Shown: positions 52,034 through 56,797 of the stretch, piece after piece | Numbering within the stretch: position 1 is the stretch's first letter | Layout: each line of letters opens with the position of its first letter | Position numbers and translations under genes: made by a program | Notes under the pieces: generated by a model | The model's database searches: none | What the model was told of the DNA's origin: nothing | What the model saw: only the letters and a program-made list of their open reading frames with translations | Assembly (NCBI GenBank): GCA_016869595.1 | Contig: VGDT01000020.1 | Location: 1-56,871 of the forward strand | Length of the DNA stretch: 56,871 nt | Reading direction: 5' to 3' | Source: Alphaproteobacteria bacterium | Lineage (GTDB): Bacteria; Pseudomonadota; Alphaproteobacteria; Rhizobiales; Beijerinckiaceae

Positions 52034-52381
52034 ATGAGGGTCGCCGTTTTTAAGTTTGCCGCTTATGCGGTTGTCTGCGGCTTATGGCTGGGGGGCGTGG
52101 GGCCAGCGCTGGCGGCCAGCGGCCAGGACTTTCCGAACGCCACTTGCGCCTGCAAGGGCTGCGGCCAAAACAAGTCGGACCTGACAGGCAAGTGCCCCGA
52201 CGTCTGCAAGGACAAAACGGTTTACACGCTTGGAGATAAGGCCGCCCCCGCGACGGCGGCTAAGGGCAAAAGGGATAGGGCCGCGAAAACCTCCGAGCCT
52301 GCGGACTTTTGCAAGGCTGCGCGGATGAAGCTGCCGAAGGGTTGGATGCGCGCCGAACCTCCAGCGGCCAAATCGCACTAG
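52034..52381 (+). CDS. Small secreted Cys-rich protein, convergent with pmoCAB
   Basis: This 115-residue protein has an N-terminal signal peptide (FAAYAVVCGLWLGGVGPALA) and a mature region with a tight cysteine cluster (NATCACKGCGQNKSDLTGKC then PDVCKDK), plus one later cysteine (PADFCKAA). The C-x-C-x-x-C pattern is suited to disulfides or to binding a metal such as copper, but no known family is recognised. GAGGATTAG lies just before the ATG. It starts 68 bp after metC on the same strand and converges on pmoB, separated by a terminator. Its place next to the copper enzyme operon is suggestive only. Confidence 0.65.
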   Translation: MRVAVFKFAAYAVVCGLWLGGVGPALAASGQDFPNATCACKGCGQNKSDLTGKCPDVCKDKTVYTLGDKAAPATAAKGKRDRAAKTSEPADFCKAARMKLPKGWMRAEPPAAKSH

Positions 52382-52518: not shown

Positions 52519-53808
52519 TCAGAGTGCGGCTCCCGCCTGGAACCTCGGAATCACCGGGCCGCCGACTTCAGCCTTTTGACGCTCGCCCGACGGGCTGAAG
52601 AAGAACAGCAGTCCGCCGAACTGGCTGTCGGTGTCATAAGCGAGATCAGACAGGCGTTCGATGTCAAAGCGGGCGTCTTGCACGATCACTTCCAAATCGC
52701 GGGTCTCGCCCGGCGCAATCGGATTGGGATCGCTCACGGAAAGTCCGCGGTCAGCAAGGAGATAGTCCGGGAAGTCGGGCCTTGTCGTGAAGACTTCCGG
52801 ATTGAGGAAGCGCAGACCGGCGGACGTGAATTCGCCAAGCCTGACCGGCTCCTTGCCATTGTTGGCGACCTTCACCCTGATGCGCAGTTCGCGGCCAGGC
52901 ACAGTGTAGGAGCCGCCTTTGAACTGAACGGCGACGGTCGACCGCGGCTCGTCAATTGGGGAGATGCCGGTCAGCAAGCCGGCCTGCATCGGCAGCGTGC
53001 GCGGGAACTCCTTGTTGGCCGCAGCATAGAAGACGACCACAGCCAACAGAACGGCGGCAAGCGTGATCGCGCCGATCCGCTTCTCGTCTTGGCCGATCAG
53101 CTCCGCGCCCTTGCCGGCCTTGACCTGCCAATACCGAACAATGATCCCCTTGGTCATGAACCAGTAGAGAATCCAAGCGGCGGCGGCGGCCATCCAGAAG
53201 AAATGATAGATGTAGGTCCAAGTGATCCCATAAGTCTCGAGATCGATCGTGGAGCCTTCAAGGAGCGTCACCGGATTAGTGAAATCCTTCATGTCGCCCT
53301 TGATGGTGATCCATTGGCCCGGACCGACGATGGGACCGCCGTCCTTGACGTTGATCTGGACATGGACGTGATAACGGCCTTGGCGACGCGCTTTCAGGAC
53401 GATCTTATATTCGTAGTCCTTGCCCACATCCATGGAGAAGGTGCGCGGCACCGGCACTTCGCCGACATAGGCGCTCTTGCGAATGAGCACCGGCCCCGGC
53501 TCGCCGACATTGAGGAACGACTCGCCGGGTTTGGCGACAGCCTGCGGCCAACCGGAGAACACATGCACCTTGCCAGTGAGCTCCATCTCGTCGTTGACGT
53601 TGAGTTCGGTCTTCGACCATTTGACGTCGTACCAGTTGAGCGTGCGCATGCGCAGGAACGCCTGCTGCGAACGTTCGCCATGCGCAGCGGCGGGCGTCGC
53701 CGCCGGCAAGGTGGTTATCGCGCCAGCGACCGCTAATCCGAAGATCCAAAGGCGAACGGCGCGCGCCGTCACGCATTTGGCCATCGATTGGATATTCAAG
53801 CTTTTCAT
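52519..53808 (-). CDS. pmoB: Particulate methane monooxygenase subunit B
   Basis: PmoB is the large, mostly periplasmic subunit of pMMO, with two cupredoxin-like domains joined by two membrane helices. The 429-residue protein has an N-terminal leader up to about residue 42, so the mature N-terminus is His43 (AAHGERSQQ). The copper ligands corresponding to His33, His137 and His139 of the Methylococcus enzyme are His43, His147 and His149 (GRYHVHVQI), with exactly conserved spacing. The residue equivalent to Methylococcus His48 is Asn58 (TLNWYD), as in type II methanotrophs. Two helices occur around 225-245 and 265-285, and the C-terminal cupredoxin ends in FFSPSGERQK. It is the last gene of pmoCAB. 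Confidence 0.97.
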   Translation of the reverse strand: MKSLNIQSMAKCVTARAVRLWIFGLAVAGAITTLPAATPAAAHGERSQQAFLRMRTLNWYDVKWSKTELNVNDEMELTGKVHVFSGWPQAVAKPGESFLNVGEPGPVLIRKSAYVGEVPVPRTFSMDVGKDYEYKIVLKARRQGRYHVHVQINVKDGGPIVGPGQWITIKGDMKDFTNPVTLLEGSTIDLETYGITWTYIYHFFWMAAAAAWILYWFMTKGIIVRYWQVKAGKGAELIGQDEKRIGAITLAAVLLAVVVFYAAANKEFPRTLPMQAGLLTGISPIDEPRSTVAVQFKGGSYTVPGRELRIRVKVANNGKEPVRLGEFTSAGLRFLNPEVFTTRPDFPDYLLADRGLSVSDPNPIAPGETRDLEVIVQDARFDIERLSDLAYDTDSQFGGLLFFFSPSGERQKAEVGGPVIPRFQAGAAL

Positions 53809-53882: not shown

Positions 53883-54653
53883 CTAGACCTCTTCGATTTC
53901 GAGATATTTCGTCGTCGAGAACCATTTGCCCATGTTCCACCACAGGAAGTAGACGAGCATCGAGATGAAGCCGGAGAAGAAGGCCGCGACCGGCACAACG
54001 TCCTTACCGAAGGTGCGCAGCGTGCCGCGCTCGACCATGCGGATATATTCCGGCGTGCCGGTGCGGACGTAGTTGAAGCCGATGAGGTCGGCGAGCGTGA
54101 GCAGCACGCCGTCGATTTCAGCGGCCTGATGATATTGCGCCAAGACGGGCCAATTGATCGGATAGAACAACAGGCCCCAGCCAAGGCCGCCGACGACCGC
54201 CGTGATGAGCCAGCTGCCCGAGATCATCAGCACGATATCCAGCCAGAAGCCCATGGGAATGAGCGCCGACGGGAAAACGAGGTTGATCGGGAAGAAGGTC
54301 CAGCCCCAGAAGTTGTCGTAGCGGTTGATCCACTCGCCAACGAGCAGGGCCAGCACCACGGTCGTTGCGCCGATCGGTAACCGGAACCTCGTCCAGAAGA
54401 AGGACTGCGAGGCGGCGGCGAAGCACATGGCGACAATCGGCGCCACGGTCGGCCACATGCGGCGGTCCTTAAAATCGATCCAGAAGTCCCAGTCGCCGGC
54501 GAGCAGCATGTAGTGGATGTGGAAAGAGCCGAGCAGCACGGCGAATAGGATCACCAGAAGGATCCAGTCCGTCAGGATGACGCAGCCGAGAAACTCTTCC
54601 TTCGATTTCCAGGTCTTGCCAGCCGGCGAGCCTGTTTCAGTCGATGCCGACAT
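53883..54653 (-). CDS. pmoA: Particulate methane monooxygenase subunit A
   Basis: PmoA is the second membrane subunit of pMMO. The 256-residue protein has seven or so hydrophobic helices and the family signatures HIHYMLLAGDWDFWIDFKDR, GEWINRYDNFWGWTFFPINL and YIRMVERGTLRTFGKDVVPV, all diagnostic of methane or ammonia monooxygenase A subunits. The ATG giving MSASTETGSP has GAGAGG upstream and is preferred over an open extension 54 codons further 5'. Sequence details (for example FHIHYMLLAGDW and the RTGTPEYIRM form) differ from the canonical Methylocystis/Methylosinus PmoA1 as I recall it and lean in part towards PmoA2 or Methylocapsa types. Ammonia oxidation is unlikely given the genomic context. 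Confidence 0.97.
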   Translation of the reverse strand: MSASTETGSPAGKTWKSKEEFLGCVILTDWILLVILFAVLLGSFHIHYMLLAGDWDFWIDFKDRRMWPTVAPIVAMCFAAASQSFFWTRFRLPIGATTVVLALLVGEWINRYDNFWGWTFFPINLVFPSALIPMGFWLDIVLMISGSWLITAVVGGLGWGLLFYPINWPVLAQYHQAAEIDGVLLTLADLIGFNYVRTGTPEYIRMVERGTLRTFGKDVVPVAAFFSGFISMLVYFLWWNMGKWFSTTKYLEIEEV

Positions 54654-54771: not shown

Positions 54772-55548
54772 TTAGAGCGCGAGCGCGTCCTTCTCGTACT
54801 CTTTGCTGAGTTCAATCACGCGGTCGAGCACCTGACGCGCCACGCCAAAAACGGCGAGCGCAAACCAGCCGAAGAACACGAAGCCCCAGTGCAGCGGCGC
54901 CGTGAACAGCTCTTCCATGAACCAGAAGGTGTGTCCCCACTCATTCAGGCCGATATTCGGGAAGATCATGAACGGCCCGGCGAAGAACATCAGAAAGGCG
55001 AGCGAGATTCTCTTCGCGAACTGCGGAATGCGCGTATGCGCGTACATGAAGGCGCCCCAGCCGCAGATGATGTAGATCGGATAGCTGAGGTAGAACTCCA
55101 GGATGTGGCTCGGCGTGAAGTCGGTGTCGCGAATGACCGTCTGGTGCCAGGTGCCGTCCTGCTCGGTGAAGTAAGACGCGCCCCAATAGACCGAGAAGGC
55201 GTAAACCGCGAGCCAGCCGATGAGCGTCAAGATGCGACGCATCTCTTCTCGCGGCGCGACGGCGTCGATATTGCGATCGCGCGTCTTCCACAGATAGCCG
55301 CCGATGCCGCAGAAGGCGACGAACTCGAGCGGCAGCTCTGTCCACATCAAGTTCATCCAATAGGTCTGGAATTCAGGCGCGAAAGAGTCGAGGCCGGCCT
55401 TCCATCCAAAATATTGCTCATAGATGCGGATGCCGACGTAGAACACCAGCATGACGCCCATGGTGATATAGGCGGGCTTGTAGTTCACGATCGTATCGAC
55501 TTCGCCGGCTCGTGCGACGCCGGCGGCTTTTTCTGTCGTCAGATTCAT
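54772..55548 (-). CDS. pmoC: Particulate methane monooxygenase subunit C
   Basis: PmoC is the membrane subunit carrying the best-supported catalytic copper site. The 258-residue protein has about six helices. The CuC ligands equivalent to Asp156, His160 and His173 of Methylococcus are D131, H135 and H148 (FTEQDGTWHQ and FTPSHILEFY). The neighbouring CuD-type ligands Asn227, His231 and His245 correspond to N202, H206 and H220 (LNEWGHTFWF and APLHWG), and all spacings match. The ATG of MNLTTEKAAG has GGAGAGG seven bases upstream. Fifty further open codons 5' are rejected. It is the first gene of pmoCAB and is preceded by a 503-bp AT-rich region. Confidence 0.97.
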   Translation of the reverse strand: MNLTTEKAAGVARAGEVDTIVNYKPAYITMGVMLVFYVGIRIYEQYFGWKAGLDSFAPEFQTYWMNLMWTELPLEFVAFCGIGGYLWKTRDRNIDAVAPREEMRRILTLIGWLAVYAFSVYWGASYFTEQDGTWHQTVIRDTDFTPSHILEFYLSYPIYIICGWGAFMYAHTRIPQFAKRISLAFLMFFAGPFMIFPNIGLNEWGHTFWFMEELFTAPLHWGFVFFGWFALAVFGVARQVLDRVIELSKEYEKDALAL

Positions 55549-56051
55549 CAATGCCTCTCCTCTTTGGGTTCGAGACGTTTGCCGTCTCGGTTGGCGCTGG
55601 GCCTCCCGTTGCTGTGATTCTCGACGCGGCGCTGATCGCCGCCGCTTGAAGCGGCCGCGATCGCTTTGCGCGTTGACCGCTCGCGACGTGCAAACCATGA
55701 CGCGGCGGCATTCACAGCTGGAAAGACGCTATCATGCGAATACCAAGAACAATATAGTATTCGGCGTGCGACAATTTGTGCTAAATGCTGTTTAGAACTA
55801 ATTAAATTGTCTATAATTCTGAGACGCTGTTTTGTATTTAACTTGATACATTAGTAACTTTGCAGCGTTAAGTCGAGTTTAGATGTATTATAATATGAAA
55901 CTGCGCCATTTTAGAATGATCTCAAACACAATATAGCCAGAATTGCGACATGTTGACGCAAGTTATACCTATTGTGCGCAGAATTGAATCGGTGAAGATC
56001 GAGTCAGCGCTGATCGGCAGCGTTCCGCGGCAGTCCACATGAGAGGAACGG
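55549..56051. promoter_or_regulatory. 503-bp AT-rich divergent region upstream of pmoC
   Basis: From about 55730 to 55950 the sequence is strongly AT-rich, against a GC-rich window. It contains TATTATAATA (55886-55895, a perfect palindrome) and other TATAAT-like hexamers on both strands, but I find no TTGACA-like -35 at the right spacing for either direction. The pmoC promoter must lie here, and known pmo operons use sigma-70-type promoters. No gene is convincing on either strand; a minus-strand frame at 55922-56158 is antisense to the 37-residue gene and unlike any family. The first 180 bases (55549-55730) are GC-rich leader. Confidence 0.6.
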
Positions 56052-56165
56052 ATGAAGACTTTGCACTCGATCAATGAACTCGGCTGGGTCGCCTTTTGGG
56101 TCGCCTTTTGCGTGTTTCTCTTTGCGATCTTTATTCCAACCGTGAACAGAGCGCTCAATCTTTAA
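56052..56165 (+). CDS. 37-residue single-helix membrane microprotein divergent from pmoC
   Basis: This short frame begins ATG at 56052 with GAGAGGA four to ten bases upstream and ends TAA at 56163-56165. The peptide starts MKTLHSINELGWVAFWVAFC and continues VFLFAIFIPTVNRALNL. It has a charged/polar N-terminus, one 20-residue aromatic-rich transmembrane segment and a short polar tail, like small accessory subunits of membrane enzymes. A 12-base direct repeat (GGGTCGCCTTTT twice) encodes the duplicated WVAF. It is transcribed away from pmoC and followed by a strong stem-loop. No family is recognised. Its position next to pmoC suggests, but does not prove, a link with pMMO. Confidence 0.6.
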   Translation: MKTLHSINELGWVAFWVAFCVFLFAIFIPTVNRALNL

Positions 56166-56204
56166 CCGTAACGCGGTTCGTCCTCTTCCCTCCCCCAGGC
56201 GCCC

Positions 56205-56241
56205 GATCGTCCCGACTCGATCTCCCCGAGTCGGGACGATC
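56205..56241 (+). terminator. 15-bp perfect stem-loop after the microprotein gene
   Basis: GATCGTCCCGACTCG (56205-56219) pairs perfectly with CGAGTCGGGACGATC (56227-56241) around a seven-base loop, 40 bases after the microprotein stop. TCTATCC follows, so the U-tract is poor. It is still a likely transcription end. Confidence 0.6.
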
Positions 56242-56593
56242 TCTATCCAAGACGCAGAACCCTGGAAGGGAAGCTAAAAGACAAGGTCAATATGGCGTCC
56301 TATTGCTCGACGCTGTCACCTCATGTTTTTTTTTGGACTGTCGCAATGTACGCTCACTGCCGGGAGACTCAAGGAAGCAGCGTTAAAGACGCGATACGCG
56401 TGAAGTGAATCGCTCCCAAGAAGAGACGGCTGCAGCGCGCCCATGTTGGATTGGCTTCCCGTGCATTTACAAGAAACAGGCGCCGCCTCTGTAACTCTGG
56501 CCGCGCTATGTCTGAACTGAGCGTGAGCAGGAGCTCGTTGACGCTACTCAGAGAATAACAGTCGCCAAAAAAGAGCAACAAAAGAGCGAATAA
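56242..56593. other. Gene-free stretch, nothing recognised
   Basis: These 352 bases hold no frame that I can support. A run of ten T's near 56325 has no stem before it. Base composition is less GC-rich than the core genome, consistent with a degraded accessory region. Confidence 0.5.
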
Positions 56594-56797
56594 ATGAGCG
56601 GCAACTTTGAAGAAGACCATCGTCTGAAATCCTGCAAGCGGCGGGAAGACGCTCTCCGCCAGCTTCTGACGGAAACCGTGGATAAACCTTCGAGGGAAAT
56701 CGTCGAGGAGCTAAAAAAAGACTTGGGCGTCAGCCGCGCGACCGGGTCCCGTCGCGAATCGTGTTGGAATTTGCTGACGCAGTTCCGAGCGGGATGA
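56594..56797 (+). pseudogene. HTH fragment resembling a transposase N-terminus
   Basis: This 67-codon frame has RREDALRQLLTETVDKPSRE and then IVEELKKDLGVSRATGSRRE. The last part is the recognition-helix pattern LGVSRAT seen in Mu-type and related transposase HTH domains. After SRAT the sequence departs from the expected continuation, and the frame stops soon after. No catalytic DDE part follows. A truncated or frameshifted transposase is the best reading; a free-standing small HTH protein is the alternative. No good ribosome-binding site precedes the ATG. Confidence 0.4.

What the first reader, a model, noticed from the sequence alone, without database searches (positions are those of the whole stretch)
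56052..56165. Unannotated 37-residue membrane microprotein divergent from pmoC
A well-formed small gene (GAGAGGA site, ATG, one 20-residue aromatic-rich helix, TAA, then a 15-bp stem-loop) faces away from pmoC across a shared 503-bp regulatory region. As I recall, crystal structures of type II pMMOs contain an extra helix near PmoC that could not be assigned to PmoA, B or C. This peptide has the right size and character to be such a subunit, or an assembly factor. The link to pMMO is my hypothesis; the gene structure is seen directly.
Basis: partly seen in the sequence, partly recalled or inferred. Interest (0 to 1): 0.75.

Follow-up and report, generated by a model that had tools for sequence, protein, structure and literature searches.

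The report
Microprotein partnered with high-affinity methane monooxygenase
Next to the genes for the second, high-affinity form of a bacterial methane-oxidising enzyme sits a tiny conserved gene for a 37-residue membrane protein that accompanied that enzyme form, and only that form, in the genomes examined, so it is probably an overlooked partner of the enzyme.

Summary
The 37-codon gene at 56052-56165 is real. Its neighbour is not the conventional pmoC but pmoCAB2, which encodes the high-affinity isozyme pMMO2. In 39 genomes of the genus, the 16 with the peptide are exactly the 16 with a pmoC2. In 298 genomes of the family the two sets of 20 also coincide, and 23 genomes with only other pmoC genes have no strong hit. 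All 26 ortholog loci keep the frame at 35-38 residues. pN/pS is 0.12-0.32 in this frame against 0.58-2.2 in the other five. Between lineages the intergenic DNA is little above shuffled level, yet a RegA/RegR-like palindrome lies at -102 to -150 in 26 of 26. I read the peptide as a dedicated single-helix accessory protein of pMMO2, probably a small fourth subunit; binding is inferred, not shown.

The parts
56052..56165 (+). 37-aa single-helix microprotein gene dedicated to pMMO2
   Evidence: Orthologs at 26 loci in 25 genomes, frame and length kept; pN/pS 0.115-0.32
56041..56047 (+). Shine-Dalgarno-like GAGAGGA; a purine-rich stretch precedes the ATG in the 26 loci (judged by eye)
55945..55959 (+). 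RegA/RegR/PrrA-like palindrome GCGACATGTTGACGC, 107 bp upstream of the ATG
   Evidence: A best or equal-best match with at most one mismatch lies at -102 to -150 in 26 of 26 loci. Within this window alone a one-mismatch match means little (21 found, 14.6 expected)
55768..55782 (+). Second, degenerate copy of the same palindrome on the pmoC side of the shared region
   Evidence: A match with at most 3 mismatches at -281 to -338 is printed for 19 of 26 loci (at most six hits printed per locus); the window's own copy has more than 3 mismatches
56205..56241 (+). 15-pair stem-loop after the stop codon, possible end of a one-gene transcript
   Evidence: In 8 sequences two pairs show changes on both sides, 13 never vary, none is broken. 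A hairpin follows the stop in 26 of 26 loci (no shuffle control)
54772..55548 (-). pmoC2 of the divergent pmoCAB2 operon
   Evidence: clade of peptide-bearing PmoC with support 100/99
53883..54653 (-). pmoA2
52519..53808 (-). pmoB2

Best explanation
The gene makes a 35-38 residue, single-helix inner-membrane protein that serves only the high-affinity methane monooxygenase pMMO2. SHOWN: it is a protein-coding gene under purifying selection, and it is linked one-to-one with pmoCAB2 in the genomes examined. SEEN IN THE SEQUENCE: a ribosome-site-like stretch before it and a hairpin after it. INFERRED: it is transcribed from its own promoter, together with pmoCAB2, under a RegA/ActR-type redox regulator that reads the palindromes between the two genes. 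Its helix (aromatic W12, W16, F24, F27, ending at P29, with the tail VN(R/K)xLN) packs against the pMMO2 membrane core as a small fourth subunit, in the way CydX serves cytochrome bd or AmoX/Y/Z serve archaeal AMO. There it stabilises or tunes the pMMO2 trimer. The invariant His5 and Glu9, one helix turn apart at the membrane edge, could touch a copper or a PmoC2 loop. My probabilities: real conserved gene 0.98; acts in pMMO2 biogenesis or function 0.9; stable subunit rather than transient factor about 0.5.
For: Co-occurrence: the same 16 of 39 genus genomes have pmoC2 and the peptide, G033 with two of each. In the family, 20 of 20 genomes with PmoC at 83% identity or more have it; 0 of 23 with only other PmoC and 0 of 255 without a PmoC match have a strong hit. 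Named loci: 14 of 14 pmoC2 loci, with pmoA and pmoB following in all 14, carry it, and 0 of 66 others do at tblastn E<0.05 (the 80 loci are the best of 316 matches). Single origin: the peptide-bearing PmoCs form one clade, 100/99, in a tree of 56 rows. Selection: on a 33-codon core, pN/pS 0.115 (close group), 0.19 (Methylosinus), 0.32 (all 24 distinct sequences); other five frames 0.58-2.2; no stop in frame. Thirteen of 37 columns are invariant among 19 sequences. Shared regulation: palindrome at a similar place in 26 of 26, while the surrounding intergenic DNA is within 0.02 of shuffled identity in 11 of 21 lineage pairs and 0.03-0.09 above it in 10; the genome holds an ActR/PrrA/RegA protein above the family cut-off.
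Against: No binding, expression or peptide evidence. No solved structure contains it by sequence, but the best PDB match of the window's PmoC is 3rfr, of the other isozyme type, so pMMO2 itself seems unsolved. A test for one conserved helix face, expected of a packed subunit, was not significant (p 0.16-0.55). The gene is divergent, not in the operon, so equal stoichiometry is not implied. Methylocapsa and Skermanella enzymes, grouped with pMMO2 in the tree (fork support 94/67), have no recognisable homologue at the loci examined, so pMMO chemistry does not need it. The RegA-like box in the window has one mismatch and is unremarkable by itself; per-locus shuffle frequencies were 0.00-0.06.
Confidence: 0.55

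Rival explanations
1. Transient assembly or quality-control factor: the peptide helps insert, copper-load or protect pMMO2 subunits, for example as an FtsH adaptor, or keeps pMMO2 subunits from mixing with pMMO1 subunits, and is not part of the finished enzyme.
For: A separate transcription unit suits a factor needed in other amounts. In one search, 19 of the 20 pmoC2 genomes also carry other pmoC genes (the window's draft genome is the exception), so isozyme sorting is a real task. PMC3794950 (passage) reports ftsH beside lone pmoC genes.
Against: No direct evidence; conservation of the tail VN(R/K)xLN and of H5/E9 fits either role.
Confidence: 0.28
2. It is the ortholog of the unassigned helix in type II pMMO crystals.
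For: Right size and character. An unidentified helix is drawn in the Rockwell pMMO structure (PMC8098663 legend).
Against: That structure is of the other isozyme. The Rockwell-like genome G010 lacks peptide and pmoC2. Table 1 of PMC7285482 lists no pMMO2 for ATCC 49242 or OB3b. Only two hydrophobic small ORFs, not related to each other, were found at the flanks of 10 pmoCAB1 loci.
Confidence: 0.03
3. Small membrane regulator that senses the membrane or redox state and adjusts pMMO2 activity or pmoCAB2 expression, with no structural role.
For: RegA-like boxes in the shared region point to redox-controlled expression.
Against: No cytoplasmic domain; nothing beyond possible co-regulation supports it.
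Confidence: 0.1
4. Small hydrophobic toxin, or an sRNA or leader with a chance reading frame.
For: Short hydrophobic ORF, probably on its own short transcript.
Against: pN/pS is lowest by far in this frame; one-to-one linkage with pmoCAB2 in 25 of 25 genomes.
Confidence: 0.02

Closest known systems
AmoX, AmoY, AmoZ of archaeal ammonia monooxygenase (PMC10030591, passages seen)
   Same: Small helical membrane proteins found by co-occurrence and linkage with a copper membrane monooxygenase; same enzyme superfamily
CydX/CbdX class small subunits of cytochrome bd oxidase (recalled)
   Same: About 37 residues, one helix, dedicated to one membrane oxidase
   Different: CydX is encoded in the operon and its binding is shown (recalled); here the gene is divergent and binding is unknown
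PmoD/AmoD (PMC6189053, passages seen)
   Same: Membrane-anchored partner encoded beside pmo genes of alphaproteobacterial methanotrophs
   Different: PmoD has a signal peptide and a periplasmic domain that forms a CuA site; this is a bare helix and goes with pMMO2 only
[quoted passage not shown]
   Same: A single helix beside a type II pMMO
   Different: Belongs to a strain without pmoCAB2 or this peptide

Membership tests
pMMO2 (pmoCAB2) locus | PmoC belongs to a clade separate from pMMO1 and is followed by pmoA and pmoB | tested here: met
   Clade support 100/99. All 14 named pmoC2 loci have pmoA and pmoB after pmoC, one cut by its contig end. Methylocystis sp. B8, Methylosinus sporium DSM 17706 and Methylosinus sp. 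Ce-a6 carry the peptide and are listed with pMMO2 in PMC7285482 Table 1; the four pmoC loci of M. rosea SV97, listed without it, have none
Unassigned helix of type II pMMO structures | Gene present in the genome of the crystallised strain | tested here: not met
   G010, PmoC 244 of 244 to 4phz, has no match at E<=0.05
Supernumerary small subunit of a membrane oxidase (CydX/AmoX-like) | Strict co-occurrence with one enzyme | tested here: met
Supernumerary small subunit of a membrane oxidase (CydX/AmoX-like) | Physically bound in the enzyme complex | not testable with these tools
   No complex prediction or proteomics available; the single-chain prediction did not complete
Known protein family in Pfam, NCBIfam or PDB | Match above cut-off | tested here: not met
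   Pfam best 15.8 bits against a cut-off of 27; NCBIfam none; PDB best E 0.36 by sequence and 4.3 by profile
PmoD | Periplasmic cysteine-containing domain plus C-terminal helix | tested here: not met
   37 residues, one Cys at position 20 that varies among orthologs
RegA/RegR/PrrA target promoter | GCG-type inverted repeat near the promoter | tested here: inconclusive
   Present at a similar place in 26 of 26 loci, but one match in the window is unremarkable. Consensus GNGRCRTTNNGNCGC is recalled; similar RegA ChIP sites are printed in PMC5359404. Binding not tested

The most novel reading that the evidence does not exclude
pMMO2 is a four-subunit enzyme. The peptide is an isozyme-specific subunit that arose once with the pMMO2 clade and is needed for its distinctive behaviour: high methane affinity, or keeping pMMO2 trimers pure in cells that also make pMMO1. 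It is switched on with pmoCAB2 by a redox regulator. It could explain part of the difficulty of studying pMMO2 apart from pMMO1.
Probability: 0.3. Interest if true: 0.85.

Novelty: new variant of a known kind. Interest (0 to 1): 0.62.

Why it matters
pMMO2 is described as the high-affinity enzyme that lets type II methanotrophs oxidise methane at low concentration (PMC7285482 and PMC3794950, passages). None of the paper listings I obtained points to a fourth pMMO2 component (searches; titles and abstract starts only, open-licence papers only). A strictly linked peptide gives a concrete target: purify or express pMMO2 with it, delete it, and look for it in the map. It also warns that expressing pmoCAB2 alone may be incomplete, and it separates two questions, since the unassigned helix in the Rockwell crystal must come from elsewhere.

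Tried and rejected
Unassigned crystal helix as ortholog: rejected.

Paralog beside other pmoC genes: small ORFs in the 1.5 kb upstream of 38 loci outside the pmoC2 set were clustered, and hydrophobic small ORFs on both flanks of 10 pmoCAB1 loci. The first gave one hydrophobic family, a different helix ORF near lone pmoC genes. The second found only two hydrophobic ORFs and no family. A scan of 1.2 kb upstream of pmoC at 15 non-pmoC2 loci and 4 pmoC2 loci found, outside the pmoC2 loci, one hydrophobic small ORF: a 66-residue TTG-start frame in Skermanella, unrelated in sequence. The three Methylocapsa loci in that scan (L062, L069, L088) had none.

Conserved helix face: not significant. Sigma-70 promoter scan and terminator scan in 55540-56400: no hit. 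Plasmid collection: no match. Order-wide profile search, a sample drawn evenly: 1 of 297 genomes, the window's own.

Neighbouring HTH gene as an obligate part of the module: it lies near the peptide in 11 of 11 loci compared (11 of the 14 named pmoC2 loci), but in G025 and G007 the only listed homologues lie far from pmoCAB2, and G201 and G034, without pmoC2, have strong homologues. It was left out of the parts.

Methods notes: weak hits (E 0.0155-1) were treated as chance. In one search the start codon was chosen by script as an ATG/GTG/TTG, ATG preferred, within six residues of the [LF]H motif; all 32 were ATG. Six of those 32 loci (L038, L039, L040, L045, L114, L123) were dropped, as judged copies of loci from the same genomes, before the counts of 26. 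One search looked at 420 bp upstream and printed at most six sites per locus; L003 and L119 have a second site with equally few mismatches. The sites compared were chosen by motif match, so their likeness is partly by choice, and the aligned stretches include them. That the genus is Methylocystis is inferred from named near-identical loci.

Full report
WHAT IS THERE. The frame 56052-56165 (+) encodes MKTLHSINELGWVAFWVAFCVFLFAIFIPTVNRALNL, preceded by GAGAGGA and followed by TAA and a 15-pair stem-loop at 56205-56241. The gap to the pmoC start codon is 503 bp.

IT IS A GENE. A tblastn search of 61 genomes gave 16 strong matches in 15 genomes, every one divergent from a pmoC, about 450-605 bp away. 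With a profile, 26 loci in 25 genomes were collected. All 26 have ATG, a purine-rich stretch before it (judged by eye), 35-38 codons and a stop. On a 33-codon core of 24 distinct nucleotide sequences pN/pS is 0.32 overall, 0.115 in the window's close group and 0.19 in the Methylosinus group. The other five frames give 0.58-2.2, and no sequence has a stop in the real frame. Of 37 columns 13 are invariant among 19 sequences: H5, E9, W12, V13, W16, F24, F27, I28, P29, V31, N32, L35, N36.

IT BELONGS TO pMMO2, NOT pMMO1. The window's PmoC is at least 83% identical to a set of Methylocystis and Methylosinus PmoCs and at most 73% to the others listed. In a tree of 56 PmoC rows (a choice of named loci, the Rockwell-like genome, three gammaproteobacterial rows and the window) the 15 peptide-bearing rows form one clade with support 100/99, and the Rockwell-like PmoC lies in the other type II group. 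Named strains with the peptide (Methylocystis sp. B8, Methylosinus sporium DSM 17706, Methylosinus sp. Ce-a6) are listed with pMMO2 in Table 1 of PMC7285482; the four pmoC loci of M. rosea SV97, listed without pMMO2, have none. That paper calls pMMO2 high-affinity (passages; sections 14 and 24 read).

STRICT LINKAGE. In the genus, 16 of 39 genomes have the peptide and 16 of 39 have a pmoC2. They are the same 16, and G033, which shows two pmoC2 genes, also shows two peptides. In 298 genomes of the family, 20 have a strong peptide hit and the same 20 have PmoC at 83% identity or more; the other 23 genomes with some PmoC have no strong hit. One of those 23 (G034), and a second place in G025, gave weak matches at E 0.016-0.021 inside long frames, taken as chance. 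Across 297 genomes sampled from the order only the window's own genome matched. Among the 80 best of 316 named PmoC matches, 14 of 14 pmoC2 loci have the peptide and 0 of 66 others do. Gammaproteobacterial genomes were not profile-searched (one search failed); the gammaproteobacterial loci among the 66 had no match.

THE CRYSTAL HELIX. A genome whose PmoC equals the 4phz chain over 244 of 244 residues (G010) has no peptide at E<=0.05 and no pmoC2. Table 1 of PMC7285482 lists no pMMO2 for ATCC 49242 and OB3b, and PMC3794950 counts pMMO2 among the features unique to SC2 against Rockwell and OB3b (passage). So the unidentified helix drawn in the Rockwell structure (PMC8098663 legend) cannot be this protein. 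I looked for a counterpart beside pmoCAB1 and found no family.

REGULATION. Within the window's close group the intergenic region holds conserved blocks. A palindrome of the form GCGACA-N3-TGnCGC, with at most one mismatch to the RegR-type consensus (recalled), lies 102-150 bp before the ATG in 26 of 26 loci. A weaker copy nearer pmoC is printed for 19 of 26 with up to three mismatches. Between seven lineages the region is within 0.02 of shuffled identity in 11 of 21 pairs and 0.03-0.09 above it in 10, while the sites agree at 10-13 of 15 bases (the sites were chosen by motif, so part of this is by choice). RegA ChIP sites printed in PMC5359404 look alike, for example GCGACCGTTCGTCGC and GTGACAATTTGTCCC (passages). 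The RegR boxes of PMC4064962 are looser (section 16), and a PrrA study found no strong motif (PMC4263372, passage). The genome has an ActR/PrrA/RegA protein above the family cut-off. Against this: in the window alone 21 matches with up to one mismatch stand against 14.6 expected, so one match means little. A stricter pattern occurs 27 times in the genome against 6 for a reversed control. Regulation by RegA is therefore a suggestion.

TRANSCRIPT END. A hairpin of 9 or more pairs starts 17-62 nt after the stop in 26 of 26 loci, with a T-run in several. Such hairpins are common in GC-rich DNA and no shuffle control was run. In eight close relatives 15 pairs are kept, two of them with changes on both sides and 13 invariant. 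The terminator scan of the window found none.

HOW IT PROBABLY WORKS. Shown: a conserved gene, bound by descent to pmoCAB2. Inferred: a single-helix protein that sits in the membrane with pMMO2. The strict one-to-one link and the constrained aromatic helix and tail favour a stoichiometric small subunit, comparable with AmoX/Y/Z (PMC10030591, passages) or CydX (recalled). A transient assembly factor or isozyme-sorting factor is the main rival. A helix-face test gave no significant result, and no structure prediction was obtained, so the docking site is unknown.

NOVELTY. Pfam, NCBIfam and PDB give no family. The paper searches listed nothing on such a peptide in the titles and abstract starts shown; of the papers cited I saw passages or named sections, not whole texts. 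The original pMMO2 paper was not held, and whether databases annotate the gene as hypothetical could not be checked.

Noticed in passing
L070:1078-1233, L075:2504-2662, L077:1645-1803, L082:1658-1816, L083:2615-2770, L086:2601-2759: A different conserved single-helix ORF (about 52-63 aa, e.g. ...ALAIAVILFGNVALVRAMDVALDTLVH) lies 1.2-2.2 kb upstream of pmoC genes without a following pmoA or pmoB, on the same strand; the one sequence scanned has no Pfam match.
   Followed up: partly
window 56594-56797: Start of a helix-turn-helix gene that follows the peptide in 11 of 11 relatives compared; here it breaks off near the contig end and may continue on contig C45:20092-20385 of the same genome, while another copy is on C95, so an insertion or an assembly break is likely. 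In a Methylosinus relative a Mu-transposase-like ORF follows.
   Followed up: partly
window about 52034-52381: Small Cys-containing, probably exported protein (115 aa) just beyond pmoB2, convergent with it; no Pfam family.
   Followed up: no
genome G000: Only one pmoC was found in the window's assembly, although PMC7285482 says all members of the group have pmoCAB1; the repeated pMMO1 operons are probably lost from this draft.
   Followed up: partly
PmoC tree: The pMMO2 clade sits with Methylocapsa/USC-alpha and Skermanella rather than with pMMO1, though that fork is weakly supported (94/67) and the root was set at the midpoint.
   Followed up: no
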